Part shown: positions 2,644-59,998 of the stretch, one piece after another
Numbering within the stretch: the stretch's first letter is position 1
Layout: the number at the start of each line of letters is the position of its first letter
NCBI RefSeq assembly: GCF_900110605.1
Contig: NZ_FOFI01000003.1
Span: 434,001-498,000, forward strand
From: Epilithonimonas lactis
GTDB lineage: Bacteria > Bacteroidota > Bacteroidia > Flavobacteriales > Weeksellaceae
Reading direction: 5' to 3'
DNA: 64,000 nt
Notes under the pieces: model-generated
What the model saw: the letters and a program-made list of their open reading frames with translations, nothing else
Told to the model about the DNA's origin: nothing
Database searches by the model: none
Position numbers and translations under genes: made by a program

Positions 2644-2752
2644 CCCTAGCCCCGATGGGAACGGCATCCTTTTTTGTCTTATGCGAAAATTTGATTTTGA
2701 TGACAAAACTTCTGAGACAAAAAAGATACAGTGGACAGCGGGAAACAGCTCC
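2644..2752 (+). repeat. Structured intergenic repeat element, copy A
   Basis: Conserved left arm (AGCCCCGATGGGAACGG then ATCCTTTTTT) and right arm (AAAAAAGAT, then GGACAGCGGGAAACAGCTCC). The centre forms a hairpin: TTTTTTGTCT at 2670-2679 pairs perfectly with AGACAAAAAA at 2715-2724. Related copies lie at 5503, 39858, 42269, 55682 and 63007. Confidence 0.7.
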
Positions 2753-5502: not shown

Positions 5503-5602
5503 CCCTAGCCCTGATGGGAACGGCATCCTTTTTCTTGGTAGCCTTGGACTATGCTCAGGCACCGAGAAAAAGATATAGTGGACAGCAGGTTCCCGGCTCC
5601 TG
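5503..5602 (+). repeat. Structured intergenic repeat element, copy B
   Basis: The same arms as copy A (AGCCCTGATGGGAACGGCATCC; AAAAAGATATAGTGGACAGC; GGCTCC). The centre is different but still forms a long hairpin: CTTTTTCTTGGT at 5528-5539 pairs with ACCGAGAAAAAG at 5561-5572 (one G-U pair), extended by GCCT (5541) with AGGC (5557). Confidence 0.7.
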
Positions 5603-22567: not shown

Positions 22568-22670
22568 TATTGTTTGTCTTTTTTTGATAAAACGCAATTA
22601 AATTAATTTTATTATATACCATTTTTTTAAAAAAATCGTTTATTTTGTAATCTTAATTAAAATAACGTTG

Positions 22671-25600: not shown

Positions 25601-26612
25601 TCGTGTGGCAATCAATATCTTTGATAAAAAAATAACCAAAACAACACTTAATAACGACAACGTACCGGAACTCAATGCTAAAATGACCTTCACTGAAGAA
25701 CCAAGTGCGATTGTAAAAGCATCAGGAACTGTGGTCAAAGGACTTTACACAGTGGAATTCTATGTACCAAAAGACATCAATTATGAAGTGGGGAATGGAA
25801 GGATCCTAGCCTACGCTGATAACAAAAGTTTTGACGTTTTCACCAATCAGGTACAATCCGTGGGAGACATCAATCCAGAAGGTATCAATGATAATGAAGC
25901 GCCTGGTGTCAACTTATATATGAATAATACCAACTTCGCAAACGGCGGTATCACGGATCAGAATCCAATGTTGTTGGCTTGCGTTAAAGATAATTTTGGG
26001 ATCAATTCCACAGGTGCAGGGATCGGGCATGACATCACTTTTGTTTTGGATGGAGACATTATCAACACCACTTCTGTGAACGATTACTTCTCTTCCGGAG
26101 ATGGTAACGGTTGTAGTTTTACAGATCTTAAGGACTATCAGAAAGGCTCTGTCACTTTCCCTCTGAAAAGTCTGACTCCGGGCGAACATCAATTGGTCTT
26201 TAAAGTTTGGGATATCAACAATAATTCGACATCATCCACGTTAAACTTTGTAGTAAAAGACGAATCCGAGAAAAAACTGACAGTCAACAGACTTCTCAAC
26301 TGGCCAAATCCTTTTACCAACAAAACCTATGTTCAATTCGAGCATAACTGTGATGATATTTTGGATGTCAACGTTCAGATCTACACCATCACTGGAAAAA
26401 TTGTAAGAACATTGTCAACCAGTATCACGGCAGAACCTTTCCTACAAGGCTTCAGAACACCAAGACAAGCTATCGAATGGGACGGGAAAGATGATTTTGG
26501 TGACACAGTAGCAAAAGGTACATATATTTTTAAGATATTTGCACGCAGCCAAAATCAGGAGAAATGTTCTGGAAGCGCAACAGCAGTTGAAAAAATGGTT
26601 TTATTAAAATAA
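22671..26612 (+). CDS. porU: Type IX secretion sortase PorU
   Basis: PorU is the cell-surface cysteine protease that removes C-terminal sorting domains from T9SS cargo and attaches some cargo to the surface. The 1313-residue protein has a signal peptide (ending near FGHAQ), a long N-terminal beta region, and a gingipain-like C25 peptidase domain at about 540-930. The catalytic pair is His796 in YFGHGG and Cys834 in TITCEF. A C-terminal domain begins near NWPNPFTNKT and resembles a sorting/gliding domain (about 1225-1313). The ATG at 22671 is chosen over an adjacent TTG. porV follows 44 bases later. Confidence 0.95.
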   Translation: MKFKIYILALCIFSIFGHAQKINLTWDGYKEMDYGTEKFTYPFFSNYNYQVDASTIFANLTIKTNNQVKLEQFVWEELPAKDIKDLKINSLSGSPRSSINYFFSETENAESANISVETIKSENGKIYKLVSFTISQTNKKTSDLYRNNNKFGTSENPLKSGTFYKIKVDKSGIFKITKQFLQQNGINVASINPKNFRIYGNGGLMLPEVNQDTRYDALQQDAIQVIGEEDGVWNDNDYALFYAQGPNGYNIFDFSNGNGNKKTDYRTDRPQNVVNIYDDFSYYFINFDIGEGLRVQSLDSNLPSELITRYDEYQVINEEKFNLVKLGRNWTGDAIPNNKEIVFNTKSPIRGDDPIKFRTRVIPFNAQSGKFTTTFNGDVQSTSIASNAESYLSNIVHAKTLFNQSGTTLKFNYTTDISGNPNASFYFDYAEVQYKEDLSFNNTQMNFRNFDISEGSGELYGFSIANASGIDQVWDVSDVTTPKKIINKNGQNTVFNFGYTANSTNFNNEFTAFKNSSAYDPTFVGRIDNQDLSSLSGVDYLIITQPAMIGQAQRLATYHQSKNGYNVQVVDVNKIYNEFSSGSKDITAIRDFVTKLNTPAGSLKYVLLLGDTSYDFKNRIANNTDIIPSYQSENSADVKGSYVTDDYFVMTKTQTTNEIYQILPDLPIGRLPADNVQEAKVLIDKTLAYYNALPGQSSPFGEWRMKLDFVADDDFEGSGPRMANGQDVLPPFHHLVDYTIKQNFEVNTDKPEYNIKKLYLDAYPAVTGAGGQRFPQINQAITNDMGNSLYLFYFGHGGINGWAQERVLSSTEVQGFNNFTSVYSRFPLVSTITCEFTLWDEPNTNSVGEQLMKHTTGGAATMITSSRAISVDYGRKFTLLFTDNVFKLDADDFQNLGDTHLRAKRIYNSMYNSSSSAIDHLRVNFLGDPAMKLSRPKRLLKIDNIEPAGKIRALDFVKITGRVVKADGTTTDDTFNGRVAINIFDKKITKTTLNNDNVPELNAKMTFTEEPSAIVKASGTVVKGLYTVEFYVPKDINYEVGNGRILAYADNKSFDVFTNQVQSVGDINPEGINDNEAPGVNLYMNNTNFANGGITDQNPMLLACVKDNFGINSTGAGIGHDITFVLDGDIINTTSVNDYFSSGDGNGCSFTDLKDYQKGSVTFPLKSLTPGEHQLVFKVWDINNNSTSSTLNFVVKDESEKKLTVNRLLNWPNPFTNKTYVQFEHNCDDILDVNVQIYTITGKIVRTLSTSITAEPFLQGFRTPRQAIEWDGKDDFGDTVAKGTYIFKIFARSQNQEKCSGSATAVEKMVLLK

Positions 26613-47859: not shown

Positions 47860-49620
47860 ATGAAATTAAAAACAATTTTTACGTTCGTAATCTTACTTTT
47901 CATTGGTCAGATTTCTGCGCAACAAAAAACCTATTGCAATCCCATCAACATCGATTATGGCTACACGCCTTTCGAAGTTTTCTCAAGACAAGGGAAACAC
48001 CGCGCAACGGCCGACCCGGTGATTGTCAATTTTCAGAAAAAGCTTTTCTTATTTTCCACGAATCAGGAAGGCTATTGGCATTCTGATGATATGCTGAATT
48101 GGAAATTCGTTCACAGAAAATTCCTTCTCGATAACAAATACACCCACGATTTGAACGCACCCGCAGTTTGGGCGATGAAAGATACTTTGTACGTTTTCGG
48201 TTCCACTTGGGAACAGGATTTTCCGATTTGGAAAAGCACCAATCCAACCAAAGACGATTGGAAAATCGCTGTCGATACTTTGAAGGTTGGTGCTTGGGAC
48301 CCAGCTTTTCATTATGATGAGGACAAAAACAAATTGTATTTATACTGGGGTTCGAGCAACGAATGGCCACTTCTAGGAACCGAAATCAAAACCAAAACAA
48401 TGCAATCGGAAGGTTTCGTAAAACCGATTTTAAGATTGAAACCAGAAGACCACGGCTGGGAAAGATTTGGCGAATACAATGACAATGTTTTCCTTCAACC
48501 GTTTGTAGAAGGTGCCTGGATGACGAAGTACAAAGACAAATACTATATGCAATATGGCGCGCCAGCTACAGAATTCAGTGGATATTCTGACGGTGTTTAC
48601 GTTTCTAAAAATCCATTGGAAGGTTTTGAATATCAACAACATAATCCATTTTCGTACAAACCCGGTGGATTTGCAAGAGGCGCTGGCCACGGTGCAACTT
48701 TCGAAGATAATTTTGGGAATTGGTGGCACGTTTCCACGATTTTCATTTCGACCAAAAACAATTTTGAAAGACGTTTGGGAATCTGGCCAACTGGCTTCGA
48801 CAAGGACGACGTGATGTACACCAACACAGCTTACGGCGATTATCCGACTTTGCTTCCGCAATATGCGCAAGGAAAAGATTTTACCAAAGGATTGTTCCCA
48901 GGTTGGATGCTTTTGAATTACAACAAACCCGTTCAGGTTTCCTCAACTTTGGGCGGTTATCAGGCCAATCTTGCGGTCGATGAAGATATTAAAACCTATT
49001 GGAGCGCTAAAACCGGAAATTCCGGTGAATGGTTTCAAACTGATTTGGGCGAAGTTTCCACGATTAATGCTATCCAGGTGAATTATGCTGACCAAGATGC
49101 TGAGTTTATGGGAAAAACGCTTGGCAAAATGCACCAATACAAAATCTATGGTTCCAATGACGGCAAAAAATGGACGGTGATTGTCGATAAATCAAAAAAC
49201 CAAACCGACGTTCCACACGATTACATCGAACTTGAAAAACATGCAAAAGCAAGATTCCTGAAAATGGAAAACCTGAAAATGCCGACAGGAAAATTTGCAT
49301 TGAGCGGATTCCGAGTTTTTGGAAAAGGCGCCGGAGCAAAACCTGCGAAAGTTCAAAACTTCGTTCCACTGCGCGCTGACCCGAAAAAATATGGTGAAAG
49401 AAGAAGCATTTGGTTCAAATGGCAACAGAATTCTGACGCTGACGGCTACGTTATCTATTGGGGAAAATCGCCAGACAAATTGTACGGAAGCATTATGGTT
49501 TACGGTAAAAATGAATACTTTTTCAATGGAGCCGACAGAACCGATTCCTATTATTTCCAAATCGAAGCTTTCAATGCCAACGGAATCTCTGAAAGAACAG
49601 AGGTTGTAAAATCGGAATAA
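47860..49620 (+). CDS. Secreted GH43-family glycosidase with discoidin and Fn3 domains
   Basis: A 586-residue exported glycosidase-like protein. A signal peptide ends near QISAQ. The five-bladed propeller region (about 45-340) has candidate catalytic residues Asp52 (TADPVIV), Asp147 (GAWDPAF) and Glu217 (FVEGAW), consistent with GH43. An F5/8 type C (discoidin) domain follows (about 352-485, with the DEDIKTYWSAK and WFQTDLGE marks), then a C-terminal fibronectin type III-like domain (about 495-586). There is no T9SS sorting domain. Likely action is on arabinose-, xylose- or galactose-containing glycans. Confidence 0.88.
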   Translation: MKLKTIFTFVILLFIGQISAQQKTYCNPINIDYGYTPFEVFSRQGKHRATADPVIVNFQKKLFLFSTNQEGYWHSDDMLNWKFVHRKFLLDNKYTHDLNAPAVWAMKDTLYVFGSTWEQDFPIWKSTNPTKDDWKIAVDTLKVGAWDPAFHYDEDKNKLYLYWGSSNEWPLLGTEIKTKTMQSEGFVKPILRLKPEDHGWERFGEYNDNVFLQPFVEGAWMTKYKDKYYMQYGAPATEFSGYSDGVYVSKNPLEGFEYQQHNPFSYKPGGFARGAGHGATFEDNFGNWWHVSTIFISTKNNFERRLGIWPTGFDKDDVMYTNTAYGDYPTLLPQYAQGKDFTKGLFPGWMLLNYNKPVQVSSTLGGYQANLAVDEDIKTYWSAKTGNSGEWFQTDLGEVSTINAIQVNYADQDAEFMGKTLGKMHQYKIYGSNDGKKWTVIVDKSKNQTDVPHDYIELEKHAKARFLKMENLKMPTGKFALSGFRVFGKGAGAKPAKVQNFVPLRADPKKYGERRSIWFKWQQNSDADGYVIYWGKSPDKLYGSIMVYGKNEYFFNGADRTDSYYFQIEAFNANGISERTEVVKSE

Positions 49621-49647: not shown

Positions 49648-49685
49648 AAGCTTTCGGAGTCATTCTTCGAAAGCTTTTTTATTTT
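49648..49685 (+). terminator. Terminator after the GH43 gene
   Basis: AAGCTTTCG (49648) pairs with CGAAAGCTT (49668), followed by a T-run. It separates the GH43 unit from the amidoligase cluster. Confidence 0.85.
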
Positions 49686-49853
49686 TATTAATATGATTTC
49701 GAAATATTAAATTTTCATTAATTCAATGATTTTTAATTTTAGATTAATATTCAATAATAAACCGATATTTTTAAAGAAAAAAACTCAACATTATTCGATT
49801 AATAGAAATAATTTTATAAATTTATAACTCATTAAAGAGAATTAAAAATAAGA

Positions 49854-50978
49854 ATGGAGTTTTTTCTGAAGTCAGAAGACAATGATGACCGAGCGATTTT
49901 CATTACCGGAAATTTTAACAAGTGGAATCCGCGCGATTCCAAATTTGAATTGGAAAAATTGGATGATAGCAATTATTACATCCACATTCCCGATGAACAA
50001 CTGAGTGATGAGATAGAATTTAAATTTACAAAAGGCGGTTGGGAAAATGTAGAAATAGACAAATATGACAGCATTACGCCCAATAGAAAAGCAAGAAAAG
50101 AGGACAAAAAAGTCCAGGTCAATATAGAAAAATGGCGACTGAACTGGGGACCTTTCAAGAAGGAATTTTTCCCGACGGTGGAATTGGTAGATGAGGCGTT
50201 TTACATTCCTCAGCTCGATAAGACCAGGAAAGTTTGGGCGCTTTTGCCTTTTGATTATCACAAATCTGAGAAAACTTATCCTGTGCTTTACCTTCAGGAT
50301 GCGCAGAATTTGTTTAATGAAGGCTCGGCTTATGGCAATTGGGAAATTGATAAAAAGTTAGCGCTTCTGGCAGAATACGGACGAGGCGAACTCATCGTCA
50401 TCGCCGTAGAACACGGGAACAACGACAGAATCAAGGAATATATTTTTGACAATGATGCCGTCACAAAAGATGCGGAAGGCAAAAAATATCTCAGGTTCAT
50501 CACAGACACGTTGAAACCTTGGATTGACAGAAATTACAGAACCAAAAAAGACCGTGAAAATACGGGAATCGGCGGAAGTTCTTTGGGTGGTTTGATTAGT
50601 ATTTATGGTGGATTTCTCTATCCGGAAGTCTATTCAAAATTGTTGATTTTTTCACCGTCGCTTTGGGTGGAACCAGAGAATGACTTTCCGATGATTAGCT
50701 TCAGTAATCCTTATAAAATCAAGGTTTATCTGTACGGCGGACGGCAAGAAGGCTCCAGAATGGTCGGAAGAATCAGGCTTTTCGAGAAATCTTTGAAACG
50801 ACTGAATGCTCAGAAATTGTTTGATTTTGAAGTGAAAACCAATATCAACGAGCAAGGAACGCACCAGGAATTCTATTGGTCCCAGGAATTCCCAAGAGCT
50901 GTAGAATGGCTGTTCATCGACAGTTTGGAAAGTCCAGTGAAAGCAAAAGATGAATTAGGAAATGACATCAAAAACTAA
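49854..50978 (+). CDS. E-set/CBM48-like esterase (enterochelin esterase type)
   Basis: First gene of the cluster, 374 residues, no signal peptide. An N-terminal immunoglobulin-like E-set domain (about 1-85, with FITGNFNKWNP as in glycogen-binding domains) is followed by an alpha/beta hydrolase of the esterase D/Fes group. The nucleophile is Ser243 in GGSSLGG. A histidine in EQGTHQEFYW completes the likely triad. Such enzymes hydrolyse esters in oligomeric conjugates. In this context it may release a finished or recycled product. It is 84 bases upstream of the M17 gene. Confidence 0.88.
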   Translation: MEFFLKSEDNDDRAIFITGNFNKWNPRDSKFELEKLDDSNYYIHIPDEQLSDEIEFKFTKGGWENVEIDKYDSITPNRKARKEDKKVQVNIEKWRLNWGPFKKEFFPTVELVDEAFYIPQLDKTRKVWALLPFDYHKSEKTYPVLYLQDAQNLFNEGSAYGNWEIDKKLALLAEYGRGELIVIAVEHGNNDRIKEYIFDNDAVTKDAEGKKYLRFITDTLKPWIDRNYRTKKDRENTGIGGSSLGGLISIYGGFLYPEVYSKLLIFSPSLWVEPENDFPMISFSNPYKIKVYLYGGRQEGSRMVGRIRLFEKSLKRLNAQKLFDFEVKTNINEQGTHQEFYWSQEFPRAVEWLFIDSLESPVKAKDELGNDIKN

Positions 50979-50988
50979 AACCCTACAA

Positions 50989-51035
50989 GTCCCATCGGGA
51001 CGAAAAATTTTTTAGCATAGGAATTTATTCCTATG
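50989..51035. repeat. Double hairpin between esterase and peptidase genes
   Basis: GTCCC-ATC-GGGAC at 50989-51001, then A/T-rich bases, then CATAGGAA-TTTA-TTCCTATG at 51016-51035. Both stems are perfect. It could act as an mRNA element or attenuator between cluster genes. Confidence 0.6.
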
Positions 51036-51062
51036 GATTTAATGTGAAATGATGAAGTAATT

Positions 51063-52469
51063 ATGATTAAAATCTACAATAAAAAAGAAACAACCACACA
51101 AAATATATTCCTGTTCAGCGAAGACGATTGGGAGCAGGAAAAATCGAATTACCCGAATACGGAACATTTCTTCAATGGAAAAAAAAGCGAGGTTTTCATA
51201 AAAACGGATTCCAACGAAATCAATTTTTTCATTGGAATCGGGAAAGATTCAAAAGGTTTTGAAATCCAGGCTGTAGCGAACAAATTTGCGAACAATTATA
51301 AAAAAAATCTGCAAGCTGTTCCGACTTCTGTTCATTCAAAATTAGGATTTCATTTGATTGAAGAATTTGTAAAAGGTCTGTTCTTGGGAACTTACCTCTA
51401 CCCTTTTGAAAAATCGCATCCATTTTGGCAAGAAAATTTTGAACTTCATTTTGAAAATATTTCGGAAGAAGAAGCCAAAAATTTAGCCTTAAAAACCGAA
51501 GCCCTTTGCAACGGACAATTTGCCGGAATGGAATGGCTGAACAAACCTGCGAACCACAAAAAGGTCGACCAAATCTCAGAATTTCTGAAATCTACCGCAG
51601 AAAAATATGGTTTGAATTACAAATCATTGAACCGAGAAGCATCCATCAAAGAAGGTTTGGGCGCGTTTGTATCAGTCAATCAGGGAAGTTCGCAGGAAGC
51701 TTCTTTTACGATTTTGGAATATAAATCTGAAAAAGAGAACGCCAAAACCATTGGTTTGGTTGGAAAATGCGTCTTGTTCGACACGGGCGGAATTTCCATC
51801 AAAGGTTCTGCAAATCTGCATTATATGAAAAGTGATATGGGCGGAGCGAGCGCTGTGATTGGTTCTTTGATTACAGCTTCGGAACTCAAACTTCCCGTGA
51901 ATATCATTGCAATCCTGCCGATTACGGACAATGCGGTTTCGGAAAAAGCGTATTTACCAAGCGACGTGATTACGGCTTACAATGGAAAAACGATTGAAGT
52001 CTTGGACACCGATGCGGAAGGCAGAATGACGCTTGCAGACGGACTTTCGTACTTGTCAAAGAATTATGAAACCGATGTTCTGATTGATTTGGCAACCTTG
52101 ACTGGAAGTTCCGTTCGAATGTTCGGTTACACTTGTGGCGCCTACTTTTCCAACAATGACGATTTGAAAAAATCATTGGAAAAGTCTGCAGATAAAACCA
52201 ATCAGAGGATTTGGAATTTGCCACTTTGGGATGTCTGGAAAGACGATTTCACTTCGGATGTTGCAGATTATAAGAACATTTCGATGAAGCCTTTTGGGGA
52301 TTGCATTGTTGCTGCAAAATTTTTGGAGCAATTTATAGAAGGTCATCAGAATTGGGCGCATCTCGATATTGCTGGCGTCGCTTTTGGAAATGTTGGTTAT
52401 GCGAAAGATAAGGCAGCGACAGGTTATGGCGTGCAATTGCTTTTGGATTTTATTGAGAATTATAATTAG
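51063..52469 (+). CDS. M17 leucyl aminopeptidase
   Basis: A 468-residue dinuclear metal aminopeptidase, cytosolic. Metal and catalytic residues of PepA are preserved: Lys235 and Asp240 (VGKCVLFDTGGISIKGS), Lys247, Asp258 (SDMGG), and Asp317, Glu319, Arg321 in DTDAEGRM. The first residue of the usual NTDAEGR is Asp here. The enzyme cleaves N-terminal residues from peptides, so it could trim or recycle the product of the neighbouring ligases. Confidence 0.95.
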   Translation: MIKIYNKKETTTQNIFLFSEDDWEQEKSNYPNTEHFFNGKKSEVFIKTDSNEINFFIGIGKDSKGFEIQAVANKFANNYKKNLQAVPTSVHSKLGFHLIEEFVKGLFLGTYLYPFEKSHPFWQENFELHFENISEEEAKNLALKTEALCNGQFAGMEWLNKPANHKKVDQISEFLKSTAEKYGLNYKSLNREASIKEGLGAFVSVNQGSSQEASFTILEYKSEKENAKTIGLVGKCVLFDTGGISIKGSANLHYMKSDMGGASAVIGSLITASELKLPVNIIAILPITDNAVSEKAYLPSDVITAYNGKTIEVLDTDAEGRMTLADGLSYLSKNYETDVLIDLATLTGSSVRMFGYTCGAYFSNNDDLKKSLEKSADKTNQRIWNLPLWDVWKDDFTSDVADYKNISMKPFGDCIVAAKFLEQFIEGHQNWAHLDIAGVAFGNVGYAKDKAATGYGVQLLLDFIENYN

Positions 52470-52537
52470 CAAAATGCGATTAGCTTATTGCGTTTTGCTT
52501 TTAACTAAATTAAAAACTAATCACAAATAAGAATATC

Positions 52538-52571
52538 AGACTTCGGACATCCGACTTCTGACTTCCGACAA
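52538..52571 (+). repeat. CTTCGGACATCCGACTTCTG-type word repeat
   Basis: The spacer before the first ATP-grasp gene is made of repeated GACTTC/GGACATCC/GACTTCC words. A similar stretch with CAGATTTCCAACATCGG lies at 54628-54664. Confidence 0.4.
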
Positions 52572-52584
52572 AAAATAAACGAAT

Positions 52585-53790
52585 ATGGAAAAAACAATTG
52601 TCTGCATCTCCTGCTATTACAAAGGTTACGACTTTATGGACGAGTGCAAAAAGCTTGGAAACAAAGTTATTCTCATCACATCAGAAAACCTGAAAGAAAA
52701 AAACTGGCCTTGGCACGCGATAGACGAGGTTTATTATATGCCGGAAATAGAAGCTTCGGTTTGGAATCTGGACCATCTGGTACAAGGTTTCGCATATTTG
52801 ATGAAAAATCATCAGATAGATGCAGTGATTGCTTTGGATGATTTTGATGTGGAAAAAGCGGCGATGATTCGTGAAACCTACCGTATTCCGGGAATGGGAC
52901 AAACGACGCACCGTTATTTCCGAGACAAGCTGGCAATGCGCCAACAGGCAAAGGACAACGGGATTTCCGTACCCGAATTTTCATCGATTTTCAATGATGC
53001 AAAATTGCATAAGTTCACGCAGGATGTTCCCGGACCTTGGGTTTTGAAACCACGTTCCGAAGCTTCTGCCAGTGGCATTATCAAAATAAATTCTGCCGAA
53101 GAACTTTGGCCAGCGGTGGAAAATCTGGGCGACGAGCGTTTCAAATTTTTGCTGGAAGCGTTCAAACCTGGCGATGTCTACCACGTGGATTGTTTGGTTT
53201 ACAACAAAGAAATCGTGTTTTCCTGCTTCTCAAAATACCTTTCTCCACCGATGAAAGTGTCACACGAAGGTGGTGTTTTCCGAACCAAAACTTTGGATAA
53301 AAAATCTGAAGAAGCGATTGGTTTAGAAAAAATCAACAAAGAGGTTTTGGATAAATTCGGGATTCAAAATGGGGCAACACACAGCGAATATATCCGAGGA
53401 ACTGATGGTCAATACTACTTTTTGGAAACTTCATCCAGAGTGGGTGGCGCGCACATTCCCGATATGGTGGAAGCAGCAACTGGTGTCAACATTTGGAGAG
53501 AATGGGCAAAATTGGAAAATGCATTATTGGACGGCGAAAAATACACGGTTGAAGAAACTCAGAAATTATATTCCGGATTGATTGTTTCGCTTGCCAAAGA
53601 AAAACACTCGAACACGGATGATTTGAATAATGAGCACGTGGAAAAATTCTTGCCAATCGACTATCACATCGGAATTGTTTACAAGGCCAAAACAGCTGAT
53701 ATCATTGAAGAAAGATTGGACGAAGCGGCCTTAATCGTCACCGAGCAAATTTTGAATATTCTGCCTCCCAAAGACAAACCAACGAATTAA
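52585..53790 (+). CDS. ATP-grasp ligase, carboxylase-like
   Basis: A 401-residue ATP-grasp enzyme, which joins a carboxylate to an amine via an acyl phosphate. The N-terminal Rossmann-like domain (1-90) is followed by an ATP-grasp core (about 105-320) with Lys155 in GPWVLKPRSEAS. The metal site has Glu268 and Glu281, but the motif ETSSRVGGAH has Ser283 where Asn is usual. No family name is assigned with confidence; overall it is PurK/biotin-carboxylase-like. It is the first of three ATP-grasp genes in the cluster. Confidence 0.88.
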   Translation: MEKTIVCISCYYKGYDFMDECKKLGNKVILITSENLKEKNWPWHAIDEVYYMPEIEASVWNLDHLVQGFAYLMKNHQIDAVIALDDFDVEKAAMIRETYRIPGMGQTTHRYFRDKLAMRQQAKDNGISVPEFSSIFNDAKLHKFTQDVPGPWVLKPRSEASASGIIKINSAEELWPAVENLGDERFKFLLEAFKPGDVYHVDCLVYNKEIVFSCFSKYLSPPMKVSHEGGVFRTKTLDKKSEEAIGLEKINKEVLDKFGIQNGATHSEYIRGTDGQYYFLETSSRVGGAHIPDMVEAATGVNIWREWAKLENALLDGEKYTVEETQKLYSGLIVSLAKEKHSNTDDLNNEHVEKFLPIDYHIGIVYKAKTADIIEERLDEAALIVTEQILNILPPKDKPTN

Positions 53791-53833
53791 AATTTCAGTT
53801 AAGGCTTCGAGAACCTCAGCCTGACAGCAGGTT

Positions 53834-53875
53834 TAATTAATCATTCATCAATTATCATTCATCATTTATAAATAA
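53834..53875 (+). repeat. ATCATTCATC-type word repeat
   Basis: The spacer between ATP-grasp 1 and esterase 2 consists of AATCATTCATC, AATTATCATTCATC and ATTTATAAATAA words, like those at 32547 and 56948. Confidence 0.4.
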
Positions 53876-53878
53876 GGT

Positions 53879-54592
53879 ATGCCTCAAATTACACATACAG
53901 ATTACTACTCACATATTCTTGGGATGAGCCTCCAGGTGGAAGTTACCGGACATTTTGGAACTCCGGTGATTATGTTCCCGACTTCACAGGGTTCTTACAC
54001 TCAGAATGCGGATTTCCATCTCAACGGAAGCATTTCTCATTTTACAGACAATGGAATTTTGAAATTATTCAATATCCAAACCATCGACAAATTCAGTTTT
54101 TACGACAAAGGGATTTCACCTTACGAAAGAATCCGGAATTACGAAATGTACGTTCAGTTCTTGGTTCAGGAGTTCATTCCGTACATTCAGAGAACGCATA
54201 ATACGCATCGTGTAGTGGTGGCTGGCGCAAGTTTCGGTGGTTATCACGCCGCCAATTTCGCATTCAGGTTTCCAGATTTGGTTTCTCACCTTTTCTGTCT
54301 GTCTGGCGCATTTTCTATCAGAAGTTTTATGGATGGTTACGACGACCAACTTATCTATTTCAATTGCCCAGACGAATTTATCAAGAATGATGAAGCTTGG
54401 AAGTACAAACACATGCACATCGTCCTCAGCACTTCCGACCGTGATATTTGCTTGGAACCAACGAGAAAGATGGCGGGAATACTGACCTCAAAAGGCATCA
54501 ACCATTGGTACGACGAACAAAAATGGATAGACCACGATTGGGTGCTTTGGCGAATGGTTTTCCCGAAATTCATTGGAAGATTTTTCGGATAG
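53879..54592 (+). CDS. Alpha/beta-hydrolase esterase
   Basis: A 237-residue cytosolic esterase of the esterase D family. The nucleophile is Ser118 in AGASFGGYHA. A later WIDHDWVLWR stretch holds the likely catalytic histidine. It is shorter than the first esterase and lacks the E-set domain. Its place between two ATP-grasp genes suggests action on an ester or activated intermediate of the pathway; this is inference. Confidence 0.88.
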   Translation: MPQITHTDYYSHILGMSLQVEVTGHFGTPVIMFPTSQGSYTQNADFHLNGSISHFTDNGILKLFNIQTIDKFSFYDKGISPYERIRNYEMYVQFLVQEFIPYIQRTHNTHRVVVAGASFGGYHAANFAFRFPDLVSHLFCLSGAFSIRSFMDGYDDQLIYFNCPDEFIKNDEAWKYKHMHIVLSTSDRDICLEPTRKMAGILTSKGINHWYDEQKWIDHDWVLWRMVFPKFIGRFFG

Positions 54593-54682
54593 TCAAAACT
54601 CAAATCAAATTTAAAATAACAACAAATCACAATAACTTCAGATTTCCAACATCGGATTTCTGACAATCAAAAAACAAAAATT

Positions 54683-55633
54683 ATGGCAAAAAAAATTGGA
54701 ATTTTATTCGGAATGGAAGACACTTTTCCGTGGGCATTCATTGATAAAGTTAATGAGCTTGGCAAAGGCGAATATATCGCAGAACCCGTTCAAATCGACA
54801 AATTGGAACAAGGCGCAGATTATGGCTACGCTGTGATTATCGACAGAATTTCGCAAGACGTTCCGTTCTACAGAGCTTATTTGAAAAACGCGGCAGTGAG
54901 CGGAACTTACGTCATCAACAATCCATTTTGGTGGAGCGCAGATGAGAAATTCTTCAACAATGCCTTGATGCTGAAAATCGGAATTCCATTGCCAAAAACG
55001 GTGTTGCTCCCTTCTTATGAAAGACCGACTAACACTTCGGAAACTTCATTCAGAAACTTGAAATTCCCGCACGATTGGGAATATATTTTCGATTACGTTG
55101 GATTTCCAGCTTATATGAAACCGCACGATGGTGGCGGCTGGAGAAATGTTTACCGAGTTGAAAGTCCGGAAGATATGTGGGCAAAACACGCTGAGACAGA
55201 ACAATTGGTAATGATGGTGCAGGAAGAAATCGTTTTCGAGGATTACTATCGTGTTTATTGCTTAGGCAGAAAATACGTTCACATTATGCCTTACGAGCCG
55301 AGAAATCCACACCATTTGAGATATGCAACCACGCATCAAACCGAAGGCGCTGCAAGAGAAAAATTGCTTAAAACCATCACAGATTACACTTTGAAAATGA
55401 ATGAAGCTTTAGGCTACGATTTCAACACCGTGGAATTTGCTGTGAGAGACGGCATTCCTTACGCGATTGACTTCTGTAATCCAGCGCCGGATGCTGACAA
55501 AAATTCTGTGGGAGAAGAGAACTTTGCTTGGATTGTAGAACATTCTGCAAAATTGGCGATTGAAAAAGCAAAAGATTACAAACCAGGAAAAGTAAATATC
55601 AACTGGGGAAAATTTGTGACCAATAAACTTTAA
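54683..55633 (+). CDS. RimK-like ATP-grasp ligase
   Basis: A 316-residue ATP-grasp enzyme. The ATP-binding lysine 146 is in YMKPHDGGGW, and the metal-binding residues are Glu251 (NTVEFAVRDG), Asp263 and Asn266 in AIDFCNPAPDAD. The GIPYAIDF-NPAPDAD pattern is characteristic of an uncharacterised ATP-grasp group I associate with amidoligase clusters. It probably forms an amide or peptide bond with an amine donor. A 211-base gap with a repeat element separates it from the YbdK-like gene. Confidence 0.88.
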   Translation: MAKKIGILFGMEDTFPWAFIDKVNELGKGEYIAEPVQIDKLEQGADYGYAVIIDRISQDVPFYRAYLKNAAVSGTYVINNPFWWSADEKFFNNALMLKIGIPLPKTVLLPSYERPTNTSETSFRNLKFPHDWEYIFDYVGFPAYMKPHDGGGWRNVYRVESPEDMWAKHAETEQLVMMVQEEIVFEDYYRVYCLGRKYVHIMPYEPRNPHHLRYATTHQTEGAAREKLLKTITDYTLKMNEALGYDFNTVEFAVRDGIPYAIDFCNPAPDADKNSVGEENFAWIVEHSAKLAIEKAKDYKPGKVNINWGKFVTNKL

Positions 55634-55681
55634 AACTGAACTAACTAATATTTAGTGACACAATTTGGAACGCCGAATCGT

Positions 55682-55788
55682 CGCAGCCCGACTTGAGCGG
55701 AAATCCTTTTTTGCGTGTACTCAAGTTCTATTTAGAAGGAAATCTTGGGCAAAAAAGATTGGGAGCGGAAGGCGGAAAAGCTGCCCAA
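55682..55788 (+). repeat. Structured intergenic repeat element, copy E
   Basis: GCAGCCCGACTTGAGCGG and GGGAGCGGAAGGCGG...AGCTGCCC arms. The centre holds ATCCTTTTTTGC (55703) pairing with GCAAAAAAGAT (55749). Outside, ACAATTTGG and CCAAATTGT add a 9-base outer stem. It lies between two cluster genes on the same strand. Confidence 0.75.
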
Positions 55789-55844
55789 ATTGTATCATTA
55801 ATAAAGTAACGACTAACTAACTTTAACTAACAAACACAAATAAT

Positions 55845-56948
55845 ATGCACAGATTTACGATAGGTGTAGAAGAAGAATATCAAATTATAGACGCCGAAAC
55901 GCGGGATTTGGTCTCGCACGTTTCAAAAATCATCGAAGGAGGAAAAGCCGTTCTAAGTGAAAACTTAAAACACGAAATGCACGAATCTGTGGTGGAAATG
56001 GAAACTGGAATTTGTGAAAATATCCAGCAAGCGCGCCAGGAACTTACCGACCTGAGAAGACATCTTGTAAAAACCGCTCACGACCAAGGTTTGCGCGTTT
56101 CTGGTGGCGGAACTCACCCATTTTCGCACTGGAAAGACAACGTCATCACAAAAGATGCGCGTTACGACAAAATCGTGAGTGATATGGGCGATGTGGCGAG
56201 GTCCAACCTGATTTTTGGACTGCACGTTCACATCGGAATTCCAGACCGTGAAGAAGGGATTAGGATTCAAAATGTGATGCGCTACTTTTTGCCGCACGTT
56301 TACGCTTTGTCCACAAATTCCCCTTTTTGGGTTGGCAGATTGACGGGTTTCAAATCTTACAGACAAGAAGTCTTTGCTAAATTTCCAAGAACTGGATTGC
56401 CAAGTTACTTCGGAAGCGTTGCCGAATTTGATGCTTATGTGAATCTGATGGTAAAAACCGGAACGATTGACAATGCCAAAAAAATCTGGTGGGATTTAAG
56501 AGTGCATCCCTTCTACCCGACTATCGAATTCAGGATTTGTGATATGCCAATGACGATTGACGAAACTGTTTGTCTTGCGGCGATCATGCAGTCTTTGGTT
56601 GCAAAAATCTACAAAATGCACCAGCAAAATACGAGTTACAGAAGTTACAGAAGATTATTATTGACCGAAAACAAATGGCGCGCTTCTAAGGACGGAATCG
56701 ATGCACATCTGATCGACTTCGGGAAAGAAGCGAGCGTTCCTTACCGTGACCTTTTGGAAGAATTATTGGCATTCATTGATGATGTTGTTGACGATTTGGG
56801 TTGCAGAAAAGAAGTTGAATACGCGAGAGAAATTTGCAAAATGGGAACTGGCGCAGACCGACAATTGAAAGTCTTCAACGAAAGTGGCGGTGACCTTAAA
56901 AAAGTCGTGGATTATATGATCTATGAAACTGAGAAAGGATTGATTTAA
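55845..56948 (+). CDS. GCS2/YbdK-family carboxylate-amine ligase
   Basis: A 367-residue member of the glutamate-cysteine ligase 2 fold (COG2170). Marks are FTIGVEEEYQIID near the N-terminus, then HEMHESVVEMETGICENI, SGGGTHPFSHW and HVHIGIPDREEGI (read as separate motifs), and RIFDMPMT-like FRICDMPMTIDET. Members ligate an amine to a glutamate-type gamma-carboxylate or related acid. The substrate here is unknown. It is between the RimK-like ligase and the GATase genes. Confidence 0.93.
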   Translation: MHRFTIGVEEEYQIIDAETRDLVSHVSKIIEGGKAVLSENLKHEMHESVVEMETGICENIQQARQELTDLRRHLVKTAHDQGLRVSGGGTHPFSHWKDNVITKDARYDKIVSDMGDVARSNLIFGLHVHIGIPDREEGIRIQNVMRYFLPHVYALSTNSPFWVGRLTGFKSYRQEVFAKFPRTGLPSYFGSVAEFDAYVNLMVKTGTIDNAKKIWWDLRVHPFYPTIEFRICDMPMTIDETVCLAAIMQSLVAKIYKMHQQNTSYRSYRRLLLTENKWRASKDGIDAHLIDFGKEASVPYRDLLEELLAFIDDVVDDLGCRKEVEYAREICKMGTGADRQLKVFNESGGDLKKVVDYMIYETEKGLI

Positions 56949-56959
56949 TTATAAATGAT

Positions 56960-57000
56960 GAATGATTAATAATAAATGATTTTGGTATCATTAATCATTC
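56960..57000. other. Intra-cluster stem-loop
   Basis: GAATGATTAAT (56960-56970) and ATTAATCATTC (56990-57000) are 11-base perfect arms with a 19-base loop in the gap between the YbdK-like and GATase genes. There is no T-run, so it is not a typical terminator. Confidence 0.55.
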
Positions 57001-57025
57001 AAAATTAACTCAAATTTAAAATTCT

Positions 57026-57033
57026 TAATTTTG
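57026..57033 (+). promoter_or_regulatory. -7 element before the GATase gene
   Basis: TAATTTTG, 10 bases before the ATG at 57044, suggesting an internal promoter in the cluster. Confidence 0.5.
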
Positions 57034-57043
57034 TAGAAAATTT

Positions 57044-57886
57044 ATGAATATGAGTAAGAATGATGTAAGAATTGCGCTTTTGGATATGAATAACAACCAT
57101 CCGAATCAAGGGATGCGCAATATCAGAGAATTATCTCAAGCTTTTCAGGAGCAATCTGATGATCATGTTTCGGTAGAGATCTTCGACGTTCGTTACAAAA
57201 ACGAAATGCCAGATATTAATGATTTTGATATATTTCTATCTTCCGGAGGACCAGGAAATCCGCACCGTGAAGGCTATGAATGGGAAAACAAATACGCTGA
57301 TTTCCTAGACCAGATTTGGAATCACAACAAGAAAAGTGAACAGAAAAAATATGCATTTCTAATTTGTCATTCTTTCCAGTTGGCAGTGATCCATTTTGGA
57401 ATTGCGAATGTTTGCAAGAGAAAATCCTATTCTTTCGGTGTGATGCCCATCCACAAATCTGAAGAAGGCGAGAAAGAATTCCTGTTCAAAAATCTCCCCG
57501 ACCCTTTCTACGCTGTAGATTCCAGAGGTTACCAATGTATCGAACCCAATCAGGAAAAAATAGATGAGCTCGGAATGAAAGTCGTGGCTTTAGAAAAGTA
57601 CCGTCCGACAGTTCATTTGGAAAGAGCATTGATGGCGGTTCGTTTTTCTGATGAGATCTTCGGAACTCAATTTCACCCGGAAGCAGATCCAACTGGGTTT
57701 GTGAAGAATCTTGAAGACGCCAAAAATAAAACAGCAATGATAGAAACCTTCGGAATGGAAAAATATCTTGAAACCATCGATAGAATGAATGATGATGACA
57801 AGATTGTTCTGACACAAGCGCAGATCGTTCCAAGATTCTTGAAATTTGCATCTGAGCAGATCGCAAAAAATTTAGCTTACAGTTAG
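57044..57886 (+). CDS. Class I glutamine amidotransferase
   Basis: A 280-residue type 1 GATase. The triad is Cys108 (LICHSFQ), His211 and Glu213 (QFHPEAD). The usual GxCxGxQ nucleophile elbow is a variant (ICHSFQLAV), so the substrate may not be glutamine itself. Possible roles are release of ammonia for a partner ligase or hydrolysis of a gamma-glutamyl intermediate. An alternative start is the ATG at 57050. Confidence 0.88.
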   Translation: MNMSKNDVRIALLDMNNNHPNQGMRNIRELSQAFQEQSDDHVSVEIFDVRYKNEMPDINDFDIFLSSGGPGNPHREGYEWENKYADFLDQIWNHNKKSEQKKYAFLICHSFQLAVIHFGIANVCKRKSYSFGVMPIHKSEEGEKEFLFKNLPDPFYAVDSRGYQCIEPNQEKIDELGMKVVALEKYRPTVHLERALMAVRFSDEIFGTQFHPEADPTGFVKNLEDAKNKTAMIETFGMEKYLETIDRMNDDDKIVLTQAQIVPRFLKFASEQIAKNLAYS

Positions 57887-57929
57887 ATTTTAACGCAAAG
57901 TCGCAAATGTTTTTTTAAATAATAGTGAA

Positions 57930-57968
57930 GAAAGTCGCGAAGCAAAGCTCTGAAAATTTGCGACTTTC
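57930..57968. repeat. Hairpin and GCAAAGTCGC words before the last ligase
   Basis: GAAAGTCGC (57930) and GCGACTTTC (57960) are perfect 9-base arms. Nearby CGCAAAGTCGCAAATG and GCCTTTGCGAT extend a repeat family of GCAAAG/GTCGC words. It lies in the gap before the permuted ATP-grasp gene. Confidence 0.55.
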
Positions 57969-58028
57969 AACAACATACTAAATAATATTTTTCCGCCTTT
58001 GCGATAATTTAAAAATATACTTAAAACT

Positions 58029-59210
58029 ATGATTCCAAAATACAGAACTCAATTCAACAAAGAATTTTCTCAGGAAAAATATCAGAAAACAAATGAGCTA
58101 ATCATAGAGAAATGCGGTCAGGAAGCCGCGTTTCGTCTTTCTGAAAGTCCGATTTTCCTCACTAATGATTTTTGGAACAAGCTGGATGACGCTTCACAAT
58201 CCATCATTTCGCAGATCAAAAATATGTCTGATGAAGAATTAAGCAAAGCGATTCCCGACAATTGCAAAGTTCCGAATGACACTCAAAAACCACATTTCCT
58301 GGCGATAGATTTTGGGATATGTCAAGATGAAAATGGCGAGATCATTCCGCAATTGATAGAGCTGCAAGCGTTTCCAAGTTTGTTTGGATTTCAAAGGTTG
58401 TTCGAGGAAGTGATCACAGAAGTTTATCCTTTTCTTAATGATTTGAAGAAGTCACTTTCACAGGAAGAGTTTATAGAAAAATTGAAAGCTGTGATTGTGG
58501 GAGACGAGAATCCAGAGAATGTGATTTTGCTGGAAATCTATCCTGAAAAGCAAAAAACAGCTGTTGATTTTGTATTGACAGAACAACTGTTGGGAATCAA
58601 AACGGTTTGTCTGACGAAAGTTAAAAAAGAAGGCAAAAAATTATTCTACGAACAAGATGGAAAATTAATTCCGATCAATCGTATTTACAATCGAGTGATC
58701 TTTGATGAATTGGATAAGATCGAAGGATTGGAAACAGAATTTGATTTTCGTGAAGATGTAGATGTGGAATGGATCACGCATCCGAATTGGTTCTTCAAAG
58801 TTTCAAAATATATTCTTCCAAAATTGAAACACGCGTTCGTTCCGAAAAGCTATTTCCTGTCTGATTTTCCAGAAAATGAAATGCTTGAAAATTTTGTATT
58901 AAAACCACTGTTTTCTTTCGCAGGAAGCGGTGTCAATCTGAATCCTACTCAGGAGATCATTGACCAAATTGAAGACAAAGAAAATTACATCCTTCAAAGA
59001 AAAGTGACCTACGCACCACTTTTCGAAGACATCAACGGCGAATTTTCCAAAGCGGAGATCCGTTTGCTTTTTGGTTGGGATCCGAAAAAAGAAGATCCGG
59101 AGTTGTTGGTCAATCTTGTGAGAATGACGAAAGCAGCGATGGTGAATGTGGATTTTAATAAGAAAGATGCGATTTGGATCGGGAGTTCTATGGCGTTCTT
59201 TGGGAATTAA
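58029..59210 (+). CDS. ATP-grasp protein, probably circularly permuted
   Basis: A 393-residue protein. The metal-binding-like segment IELQAFPSLFGFQ (about 110-122) comes before the ATP-lysine segment FVLKPLFSFAGSGVNL (Lys292), the reverse of the standard ATP-grasp order but as in glutathionylspermidine-synthetase-like permuted enzymes. LQRKVTYAPLFEDINGEFSKAEIRLLFGW (read in parts) lies near the end of the core. It is the fourth candidate amidoligase in the cluster. The permutation is my reading of motif order. Confidence 0.78.
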   Translation: MIPKYRTQFNKEFSQEKYQKTNELIIEKCGQEAAFRLSESPIFLTNDFWNKLDDASQSIISQIKNMSDEELSKAIPDNCKVPNDTQKPHFLAIDFGICQDENGEIIPQLIELQAFPSLFGFQRLFEEVITEVYPFLNDLKKSLSQEEFIEKLKAVIVGDENPENVILLEIYPEKQKTAVDFVLTEQLLGIKTVCLTKVKKEGKKLFYEQDGKLIPINRIYNRVIFDELDKIEGLETEFDFREDVDVEWITHPNWFFKVSKYILPKLKHAFVPKSYFLSDFPENEMLENFVLKPLFSFAGSGVNLNPTQEIIDQIEDKENYILQRKVTYAPLFEDINGEFSKAEIRLLFGWDPKKEDPELLVNLVRMTKAAMVNVDFNKKDAIWIGSSMAFFGN

Positions 59211-59293: not shown

Positions 59294-59998
59294 ATGTTGC
59301 TAGCCAGCGATTCATTCGACCTTAAACAAATTTTACTCGGTTCCGAAGAATGGAGTTTTCTTTTGGAGACTGTTCTGAGAACGAGTATCATGTTCTTCAT
59401 CATCATCTTTGGGCTTCGACTTTTGGGGAAACGAGGTGTGAAACAACTATCTGTTTTTGAATTGGTCGTCGTGATCGGATTAGGTTCTGCGGCCGGAGAT
59501 CCAATGTTTTACAAAGATGTTGGAATCATGCCAGCCTTAGTGGTTTTCACAATGATCATCAGTCTTTACAGCATTATTACGTACATCATCAGCAAAAGTA
59601 AAAAATTCGAAAAACTGGTTGAAGGAAAGCCAATTTGTTTAATAGACCAAGGCGTTTTCTGCATACAGGATTTTAAAAAAGAAGCACTCGGCGAGGATGA
59701 ATTTTTCGCAGAATTACGACTGAAAGGTGTTTCCCATCTTGGTCAAATTGAAAAAGCAATCGAGGAAATCTCGGGTGAGATCAGCGTATTTTATTATGAG
59801 GACAAGGACGTCAAATATGGTTTGCCTATCATGCCAGATTCTTTGGACAAAGCCTTCACGATCTTTGACAGAAATTCACATTATTCCTGCACATTCTGTG
59901 GCTACACGCAGGAATTTTTAACGCACGAAAAAAGCACCTGCAAAGTGTGTGGCAAAGATGAATGGGTAAAATCTTCTAACAAAAAGAGAATTTCTTAA
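59294..59998 (+). CDS. DUF421 (YetF-like) membrane protein with zinc ribbon
   Basis: A 234-residue protein. Three N-terminal membrane helices (about 22-42, 50-70, 76-100) precede a DUF421 cytoplasmic domain (QGVFCIQDF, then FFAELRLKGV). After about residue 195 it has a C-terminal four-cysteine knuckle, CTFCGY and CKVCGK (Cys199, 202, 216, 219). The cysteine ribbon is not part of the usual DUF421 family. Role unknown. Its stop overlaps the convergent HAD gene by 4 bases. Confidence 0.88.
   Translation: MLLASDSFDLKQILLGSEEWSFLLETVLRTSIMFFIIIFGLRLLGKRGVKQLSVFELVVVIGLGSAAGDPMFYKDVGIMPALVVFTMIISLYSIITYIISKSKKFEKLVEGKPICLIDQGVFCIQDFKKEALGEDEFFAELRLKGVSHLGQIEKAIEEISGEISVFYYEDKDVKYGLPIMPDSLDKAFTIFDRNSHYSCTFCGYTQEFLTHEKSTCKVCGKDEWVKSSNKKRIS

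What the first reader, a model, noticed from the sequence alone, without database searches (positions are those of the whole stretch)
49854..59210. Eight-gene amidoligase cluster with no obvious carrier or precursor
Seen: consecutive plus-strand genes for an E-set esterase, an M17 aminopeptidase, an ATP-grasp ligase, a second esterase, a RimK-like ATP-grasp ligase, a YbdK/GCS2 ligase, a class I amidotransferase and a probable permuted ATP-grasp protein. Known: ATP-grasp and GCS2 enzymes make amide or peptide bonds through acyl phosphates, and surveys of amidoligases have described neighbourhoods mixing such enzymes. Inference: this encodes assembly and turnover of a small peptide-like or amidated metabolite. 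No NRPS, carrier protein, transporter or peptide precursor is in the region.
Basis: partly seen in the sequence, partly recalled or inferred. Interest (0 to 1): 0.85.

Follow-up and report, generated by a model that had tools for sequence, protein, structure and literature searches.

The report
Conserved multi-ligase peptide gene cluster
A run of eight bacterial genes encodes several different enzymes of the kinds that join building blocks with amide bonds, and its core is kept in about a third of the sampled genomes of one bacterial phylum, so these bacteria probably make a small peptide-like compound that remains to be identified.

Summary
In detail: eight same-strand genes at 49854-59210 are intact and under purifying selection. 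They form two modules: a core (esterase E2, RimK-like ligase RIM, YbdK/GCS2 ligase YBD, class-I amidotransferase GAT, permuted ATP-grasp GSP) and an accessory set (esterase E1, M17 aminopeptidase, L-amino-acid-ligase-like AG3). Of 296 Bacteroidota genomes, 108 have RIM; 104 of these also have GSP (89) or an alternative permuted ligase, c8 (15); one further GSP genome carries a divergent c8 relative. GAT occurs in 70, each with GSP or c8. GSP had no family match; its model (pLDDT 90) matches glutathione synthetases and GspS/YgiC/YjfC. In one genus GSP is fused to a sodium:solute symporter. Best reading: a cytosolic, carrier-free, stepwise amide-ligase pathway with glutathione-like logic, making an unidentified small peptide or peptide amide. 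The genome has BshC and no GshB over cut-off, so the product is probably additional to bacillithiol. In four loci of a sister genus cyanophycin genes follow the cluster, but cyanophycin synthetase is hardly commoner in RIM genomes (3 of 26 against 4 of 54). Product, substrates and role are unknown, and the 2009 amidoligase survey could not be read.

The parts
49648..49686 (+). intrinsic-terminator-like hairpin before the cluster (12 bp stem, T run); the cluster may start a new transcription unit
   Evidence: pattern match; 13 such sites in the region against 11.9 expected in shuffles, so weak as statistics; sequence seen
49854..50978 (+). E1: PF00756 esterase with an extra N-terminal ~110 aa (E-set-like by eye only); accessory module
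   Evidence: 1.7e-24; putative nucleophile S243 and H337 in 24 of 24 aligned family members
51063..52469 (+). M17 leucyl-type aminopeptidase, the only M17 found in the genome; accessory module
   Evidence: (3.3e-100)
52585..53790 (+). AG3: ATP-grasp ligase closest to L-amino-acid (dipeptide) ligases; accessory module
   Evidence: (4wd3 8.7e-15, 3vot 1e-11)
53879..54592 (+). E2: small PF00756-type alpha/beta hydrolase, no evident signal peptide by eye; core module
   Evidence: putative triad S118 (38 of 40), D189 (40 of 40), H219 (39 of 40)
54683..55633 (+). RIM: RimK-like ATP-grasp amide ligase; core
   Evidence: best solved match D-Ala-D-Ala ligase 9.4e-4; K146, E251, D263, N266 at >=97% of 89
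55845..56948 (+). YBD: GCS2/YbdK-type carboxylate-amine ligase; core
   Evidence: 532.9 bits, cut-off 371; E. coli YbdK structure 1r8g, 1.2e-65
57044..57886 (+). GAT: free-standing class-I glutamine amidotransferase-type protein; core
   Evidence: C108, H211, E213 at >=97% of 43
58029..59210 (+). GSP: permuted ATP-grasp of the glutathione-synthetase/GspS fold with no family match; core (replaced by c8 in some lineages)
   Evidence: no hit; pLDDT 90.0, pTM 0.89; 8fbz 6.5e-14, 1m0w 9.3e-14, 3n6x 1.2e-13

Best explanation
The cluster encodes a cytosolic, carrier-free, stepwise amide-ligase pathway that builds a small, probably gamma-glutamyl-type, oligopeptide or peptide amide, by the same logic as glutathione synthesis: a GCS2-type ligase (YBD) and a glutathione-synthetase/GspS-type permuted ATP-grasp (GSP) each form one amide bond through an acyl phosphate, the RimK-like RIM forms another, and AG3 makes or feeds a dipeptide where present. 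GAT most likely hands glutamine-derived ammonia to the permuted ligase, so that one bond is a carboxamide. The esterases and the aminopeptidase process adducts or recycle the compound. Shown: intact genes, conserved residues typical of these active sites, conserved order, near-obligate co-occurrence of RIM with a permuted ligase, two permuted ligases that replace each other, the predicted fold of GSP. Inferred: that the enzymes act in one pathway, the order of steps, the ammonia hand-over, the gamma-glutamyl character, the product and its intracellular role.
For: RIM and (GSP or c8) occur together in 104 of 108 RIM genomes and 104 of 107 GSP/c8 genomes out of 296 (phi 0.949), against phi 0.11-0.19 of RIM, GSP, YBD and GAT with the unrelated gene KatG, which is commoner (193 of 296) and so an imperfect control (data). 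No genome has both GSP and one of the 15 close c8 proteins (three weaker c8 hits dropped, see the Against line). All 70 GAT genomes have GSP or c8; GAT lies beside the permuted ligase in 55 of 70, in 8 of these without RIM nearby (one, G154, has no RIM at all), and in none beside RIM without the permuted ligase. Co-occurrence holds also where genes lie far apart (coordinates; neighbourhoods). GSP and YBD belong to the two fold classes of glutathione synthesis. AG3 resembles dipeptide ligases and sits by the core in different arrangements: upstream in Weeksellaceae; downstream inverted with M17 and E1 in L196, L209 and L215; downstream inverted alone in L188 and L191; downstream with inverted M17 in L203 and L207. 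An M29-type aminopeptidase family lies between YBD and GSP in five other loci (one member scanned). Of the neighbour families found in five or more loci, one representative each scanned, none is an NRPS or carrier.
Against: No substrate or product is known. YBD is missing in 13 of 107 GSP/c8 genomes and GAT in 37 of 107, so the scheme is not fixed. Co-occurrence was not corrected for phylogeny. Mutual exclusion depends on a cut: G137 has GSP and a divergent full-length c8 relative (372 bits against 674 or more for the 15), and G288 has GSP and a 43-bit hit. GSP is far from every solved relative (TM 0.45-0.62 on the query, 10-17% identity). M17 is the only one of the genome. PF00756 esterases say little. 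In L104 and L106 an AMP-binding (adenylate-forming) enzyme lies next to RIM, and in four loci of a sister genus cyanophycin genes lie next to the cluster, so other readings of 'amide metabolism' stay open. Neighbour families in fewer than five loci were mostly not annotated.
Confidence: 0.55

Rival explanations
1. A protein- or peptide-tagging system: RIM and GSP add amino acids to a protein or cell-wall precursor, as RimK does to ribosomal protein S6, and GAT, M17 and the esterases remove or trim the tag.
For: RIM is RimK-like; amidoligase systems with permuted ATP-grasps have been proposed as tagging systems (recalled from the abstract of Iyer et al. 2009, not read here; one search shows that it is not held).
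Against: No conserved small target gene was seen between the core genes; RIM is far below the rimK_fam cut-off; GCS2, L-amino-acid-ligase and glutathione-synthetase-type enzymes act on small molecules in their studied members (general knowledge). An unlinked target cannot be excluded.
Confidence: 0.13
2. A glutathione-like low-molecular-weight thiol besides bacillithiol: YBD makes gamma-glutamyl-cysteine, GSP adds the next residue, the esterases act like S-formyl-thiol hydrolases and M17 recycles Cys-X.
For: GCS2-type plus glutathione-synthetase-type pairing; M17- and M29-type aminopeptidases by the core; no GshB over cut-off in 20 of 20 genomes searched, the window genome included (five had sub-threshold matches, the best 246 bits against 299, and the window genome's 27-bit match lies inside its cyanophycin synthetase gene).
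Against: BshC is present in 18 of 20 of the same genomes; passages of PMC6282198 report N-methyl-bacillithiol by HPLC in one Bacteroidetes strain, Polaribacter MED152, and bacillithiol genes in others, so another thiol is not needed; the Arg that binds gamma-Glu-Cys in human glutathione synthetase (recalled) is not evident in GSP by hand alignment.
Confidence: 0.1
3. An amine-utilisation or detoxification route of the Puu kind: YBD or RIM gamma-glutamylates amines and GAT is a gamma-glutamyl hydrolase.
For: PuuD is also of the class-I amidotransferase fold (general knowledge); an SSF symporter is fused to GSP in one genus, which suggests uptake of a substrate.
Against: GAT matches PF00117, with no PF07722 hit reported; no amine oxidase or aldehyde dehydrogenase is among the scanned neighbour families found in five or more loci.
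Confidence: 0.09
4. A side branch of cyanophycin or reserve metabolism: the ligases and peptidases work on beta-aspartyl-arginine or related dipeptides, or build a second reserve polyamide.
For: In four loci of a sister genus (L042, L043, L045, L046) a cyanophycin-synthetase family gene (L042 member 1267.8 bits, cut-off 850) and a cyanophycinase family gene follow the cluster, with an Asparaginase_2-type gene behind them in three, and glycogen genes precede it; in L067 a cyanophycinase and an Asparaginase_2-type gene lie near E1, and in L114 and L135 an Asparaginase_2-type gene lies beside AG3. The window genome has one cyanophycin synthetase, on another contig.
Against: Cyanophycin synthetase is in only 3 of 26 RIM genomes and 4 of 54 without RIM among 80 searched, so the core does not depend on it; the Asparaginase_2-type proteins score below the beta-aspartyl-peptidase cut-off.
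Confidence: 0.06
5. Genes of separate function that merely lie together.
For: M17 and AG3 are detected beside only 6 and 9 of 94 core loci, and M17 is the only one of its genome.
Against: Core co-occurrence also where unlinked, and replacement of GSP by c8, are not expected from chance co-location.
Confidence: 0.07

Closest known systems
Glutathione biosynthesis, GCS2-type glutamate-cysteine ligase plus eukaryotic-type glutathione synthetase
   Same: A GCS2-family ligase and a permuted ATP-grasp of the glutathione-synthetase fold stand side by side
   Different: GSP is only 10-16% identical to the glutathione synthetases it matches; it comes with a RimK-like ligase, an amidotransferase and esterases; lineages without YBD exist; no thiol evidence
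E. coli YbdK (1r8g)
   Same: YBD's family profile matches it over nearly its whole length (1.2e-65), and YBD passes the NF010039 cut-off
   Different: YBD lies in a conserved multi-ligase cluster
GspS-like ligases YgiC, YjfC and Mfla_0391 (7uka, 7uk6, 3n6x)
   Same: Fold of GSP; the c8 profile matches 3n6x by sequence at 1.8e-8
   Different: No sequence-family membership for GSP
L-amino-acid ligases (4wd3, BL00235/3vot, DdaF)
   Same: AG3 is related by sequence (DdaF weakly)
   Different: Over Pfam's general ATP-grasp cut-offs but below every NCBIfam cut-off it matched; linked to a multi-ligase core
Amidoligase neighbourhoods of Iyer et al. 2009
   Different: Could not be read; whether this cluster is listed there is unknown

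Membership tests
RimK family alpha-L-glutamate ligases (TIGR00768) | score above the curated cut-off | tested here: not met
   31.7 bits against 143.4
RimK family alpha-L-glutamate ligases (TIGR00768) | ATP-grasp residues (Lys, acidic metal ligands, Asn) conserved | tested here: met
   K146, E251, D263, N266 at >=97% of 89 sequences; roles assigned by analogy
YbdK/GCS2 carboxylate-amine ligases | score above the cut-offs of NF010039 and PF04107 | tested here: met
   532.9 against 371; 227.8 against 21
Eukaryotic-type glutathione synthetase / GspS permuted ATP-grasps | permuted ATP-grasp fold | tested here: met
   on a predicted model: of 392 matches, 19 reach E<=0.001; 18 are glutathione-synthetase, GspS, YgiC/YjfC or GSS-effector entries and one is 'Ligase Cp1B'
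Eukaryotic-type glutathione synthetase / GspS permuted ATP-grasps | sequence match to a curated family | tested here: not met
   no hit in Pfam or NCBIfam at E<=0.001; best solved sequence match YgiC at 0.043
Glutathione biosynthesis | makes gamma-Glu-Cys-Gly | not testable with these tools
   needs an enzyme assay or metabolite profile
Glutathione biosynthesis | canonical GshB in the genome | tested here: not met
   0 of 20 genomes over the TIGR01380 cut-off
Class-I glutamine amidotransferases | PF00117 match and Cys-His-Glu triad | tested here: met
   48 bits, cut-off 22.8; C108, H211, E213 at >=97% of 43
Graspetides (ribosomal peptides made by ATP-grasp ligases) | precursor peptide gene next to the ligase | tested here: not met
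   only ORFs of 51 aa or less in the 211 bp gap; median gap 29.5 bp in 50 loci
NRPS or carrier-dependent peptide synthesis | adenylation or carrier domain among the eight proteins | tested here: not met
Cyanophycin metabolism | cyanophycin synthetase goes with the system | tested here: not met
   3 of 26 RIM genomes against 4 of 54 others; adjacent in four loci of one genus
Anti-phage defence systems | match to PADLOC models | tested here: not met
   0 of 8 proteins

The most novel reading that the evidence does not exclude
Roughly a third of Bacteroidota (104 of 296 sampled genomes) make a still undescribed small gamma-glutamyl-type peptide or peptide amide with glutathione-like logic, in at least some lineages alongside bacillithiol, using a near-obligate pair of a RimK-like ligase and one of two interchangeable permuted ATP-grasps; it would be a phylum-level core metabolite that has escaped notice.
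Probability: 0.35. Interest if true: 0.85.

Novelty: new variant of a known kind. Interest (0 to 1): 0.62.

Why it matters
If right, a widespread, mostly single-copy pathway of Bacteroidota is missing from current maps: RIM occurs in 78 of 140 sampled genera, and GSP matched no Pfam or NCBIfam model. The set gives a concrete test bed (three or four ligases and one amidotransferase) for finding a new small peptide, and two dissimilar permuted ATP-grasps replace one another between genomes almost without overlap, which points to one shared reaction.

Tried and rejected
Considered and rejected: graspetide (no precursor); NRPS (no domains in the eight); defence island; plasmid-borne trait (tblastn of GSP and of RIM against 72,556 plasmid records: no match). 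HutH 13 bp after RIM in L102 (also directly after RIM in L099 and L111; the family is in 6 loci; one member scanned) and an amidohydrolase beside GSP in 4 loci were looked at as substrate hints and judged too lineage-bound. Cyanophycin genes beside the cluster in four loci were tested for general co-occurrence and did not show it; I keep this as a minor rival. Single-sequence PDB searches with RIM and GSP gave nothing significant. The model of the alternative ligase c8 was poor (pLDDT 58.9) and was not used for a fold search; its link to GspS-like 3n6x rests on sequence, and the profile comparison of GSP with c8 was weak (probability 5%, E 0.008). A Bacteroidetes-type promoter pattern (recalled) gave sites only at 47029 and 60481 between 47000 and 60500, none just upstream of the cluster. 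Literature: searches brought no paper on this gene set; searches returned none, one search listed 30 of 65 and 15 of 26. Only listings and abstract starts were seen, plus passages of PMC4431377 and PMC8939145 and PMC6282198. Iyer et al. 2009 is not held, so absence from print is not shown. On rechecking I found that I had not annotated the recurring neighbour families; searches did that, which corrected an earlier 'no regulator or transporter recurs' and added the cyanophycin rival; I moved 0.03 of confidence from the best explanation and 0.01 each from three rivals to it for that reason.

Full report
What is there. The eight + strand ORFs at 49854-59210 are real. Pfam and NCBIfam name six of them (E1, E2 PF00756; M17 PF00883; AG3 ATP-grasp_4; YBD GCS2; GAT PF00117); RIM has only a sub-threshold RimK match, and GSP has no match. 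A terminator-like hairpin at 49648-49686 precedes the cluster (such sites are no more frequent than in shuffles). All eight evolve under strong purifying selection: dN/dS 0.012-0.064 against Epilithonimonas arachidiradicis and E. bovis where defined (13 of 16 pairs; each gene has at least one value), with dS of 1 or more; two more distant species gave 3 of 16 values, 0.057-0.110. The host is a relative of Epilithonimonas (RIM 94-97% identical in L137-L139, 100% in the metagenome-assembled L136). RIM is found in 23 of 23 genomes of the genus.

Two modules. In three loci (Polaribacter L196, Flavobacterium L215, MAG L209) AG3, M17 and E1 lie downstream and inverted; L188 and L191 carry only AG3 there; L203 and L207 carry AG3 with an inverted M17. 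Of the 108 RIM genomes of the unnamed sample I fetched 94 loci; best-hit counts were YBD 52, E2 43, GSP 43, GAT 40, E1 14, AG3 9, M17 6. Short median gaps (GAT-GSP 16 bp in 32 loci, RIM-YBD 29.5 bp in 50) fit co-transcription.

Co-occurrence. In the same 296 genomes RIM was found in 108, GSP in 92, YBD in 104 (this includes a doubtful E=8.7e-4 hit in G198 and divergent relatives), GAT in 70. Nineteen RIM genomes lack GSP: fifteen carry another permuted ATP-grasp family, c8, beside RIM, and four (G007, G087, G160, G287) have RIM relatives of only 34-41% identity. Of 18 c8 hits I kept 15 (674 bits or more) and dropped G137 (372 bits, full length), G206 (68) and G288 (43); G137 and G288 also have GSP. 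RIM with (GSP or c8): 104 both, 4 and 3 alone, 185 neither, phi 0.949; GSP with kept c8: 0 shared; GAT inside the GSP/c8 set: 70 of 70; RIM with YBD phi 0.78, with GAT 0.72. The control gene KatG (193 of 296) gives phi 0.11-0.19 with RIM, GSP, YBD and GAT. These figures are not corrected for phylogeny. Genomes with a permuted ligase and no RIM are G144, G154 and G220; the G154 locus was read and shows YBD-GAT-GSP without RIM beside it. In several families RIM, YBD and GSP lie far apart or on different contigs yet co-occur.

Which parts pair. GAT is adjacent to the permuted ligase in 55 of 70 genomes, in 8 of them away from RIM (G154 has none), in none adjacent to RIM alone; in 15 it stands apart. 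YBD is missing from 13 of 107 GSP/c8 genomes and GAT from 37, so RIM plus permuted ligase is the nearly invariant pair. In two genomes of one genus GSP is joined to a sodium:solute symporter domain: one 867-aa frame in L258 (SSF 32-414, 2.4e-36; GSP 475-866) and an interrupted counterpart in L259; in L221, another genus of that family, the symporter gene ends 18 bp before GSP. This is a lineage-specific hint that something the system uses or makes crosses the membrane.

The permuted ligase. The AlphaFold model of GSP is confident (mean pLDDT 90.0, pTM 0.89, 18-sequence alignment). Foldseek against the PDB gives 19 matches at E<=0.001: human and yeast glutathione synthetase first (6.5e-14, 9.3e-14), then among others the GspS-like 3n6x, homoglutathione synthetase, YjfC, YgiC, nematode GSS effectors, E. 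coli GspS and one 'Ligase Cp1B', at query TM-scores of 0.45-0.62 and 10-17% identity. The c8 profile matches 3n6x by sequence at 1.8e-8. So both alternatives link to the glutathione-synthetase/GspS class, though their own profiles compare weakly. Conserved GSP residues (E111, Q113, K260, K292, E343, R345 and others at >=97% of 65) lie where such ligases keep ATP and metal ligands, by hand alignment and recall.

The other enzymes. The YBD profile is closest among solved structures to E. coli YbdK (1.2e-65). AG3 is closest to L-amino-acid ligases (4wd3 8.7e-15). GAT keeps C108, H211 and E213, E2 a Ser-Asp-His set (S118 38 of 40, D189 40 of 40, H219 39 of 40). M17 is the sole M17 found in the genome, which weakens it as a dedicated pathway enzyme; an M29-type aminopeptidase family lies between YBD and GSP in five other loci (one member scanned).

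Neighbours. Families found in five or more of the 95 neighbourhoods (94 plus the window) were annotated by one representative each: an ABC-transporter ATPase (9 loci, 2 to 9 genes from RIM), a second PF00756 esterase (7), Asparaginase_2 (6), an alpha-amylase-family protein (6), histidine ammonia-lyase (6), a metallophosphoesterase (6), an RsmB/F methyltransferase (6), an ECF sigma factor (6), glycogen synthase, peptidase S51, MutS, ketopantoate hydroxymethyltransferase, a HAD phosphatase and a cytidylyltransferase (5 each), and two without a hit. The ABC ATPase and the sigma factor are large general families and were not followed up. Rarer neighbours were mostly not annotated; one of them, in L104 and L106, is an AMP-binding enzyme beside RIM. 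In four loci of one sister genus (L042, L043, L045, L046) the cluster is followed by a cyanophycin synthetase family gene and a cyanophycinase (both families over cut-off in L042), with an Asparaginase_2-type gene behind in three, and preceded by glycogen genes; L067 has a cyanophycinase and an Asparaginase_2-type gene near its core, and L114 and L135 an Asparaginase_2-type gene beside AG3. Among 80 genomes searched (G000-G079 of the 296), cyanophycin synthetase is in 3 of 26 with RIM and 4 of 54 without; the window genome has one on another contig. The core therefore does not depend on cyanophycin.

How it most likely works. These ligase classes act through acyl phosphates without carriers (general knowledge). 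With a GCS2-type and a glutathione-synthetase-type ligase side by side, the simplest scheme is stepwise building of a small gamma-glutamyl-type peptide: YBD forms one bond, RIM another, GSP with ammonia from GAT a third, and AG3 supplies or extends a dipeptide in lineages that have it; esterases and aminopeptidase trim or recycle. The genome keeps BshC and has no GshB over cut-off, so the product is probably additional to bacillithiol. All steps of chemistry are inference.

Novelty. No held paper on this gene set was found, but the 2009 amidoligase survey, the likeliest place for it, could not be read. I therefore class it as a new variant of a known kind.

Noticed in passing
L258:637-3240 and L221:9290-11869: GSP fused to, or 18 bp behind, a sodium:solute symporter (PF00474) in one family of Bacteroidota.
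   Followed up: partly
L042:13785-18465 and the like in L043, L045, L046: Cyanophycin synthetase and cyanophycinase family genes directly after the eight-gene cluster, glycogen genes before it.
   Followed up: partly
L102:9547-12031; also L099, L111: RIM directly followed (13 bp in L102) by a histidine ammonia-lyase gene in one group.
   Followed up: partly
L118:8229-9653 and alignment A5: c8, an ATP-grasp-like family with no NCBIfam hit and only sub-threshold Pfam matches (CP_ATPgrasp), found almost only in genomes without GSP.
   Followed up: partly
L104:4574-6412 and L106:7665-9503: An AMP-binding (adenylate-forming) enzyme directly after RIM in two related genomes.
   Followed up: no
L065, L089, L101, L108, L110, L127: An ECF sigma factor within a few genes of RIM in six loci.
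   Followed up: no
window 2644-2749 and 5503-5596: Two Flavo-1 RNA copies on the + strand.
   Followed up: no
window 22668-26612: 1314-aa protein with a peptidase C25 domain.
   Followed up: no
window 47860-49620: 586-aa protein with an F5/8 type C domain just upstream of the cluster; its first half looks like a glycoside hydrolase by eye.
   Followed up: no
window 59294-59998: YetF/DUF421 membrane protein 83 bp after GSP, detected only in L136-L138 among the 80 named loci.
   Followed up: partly
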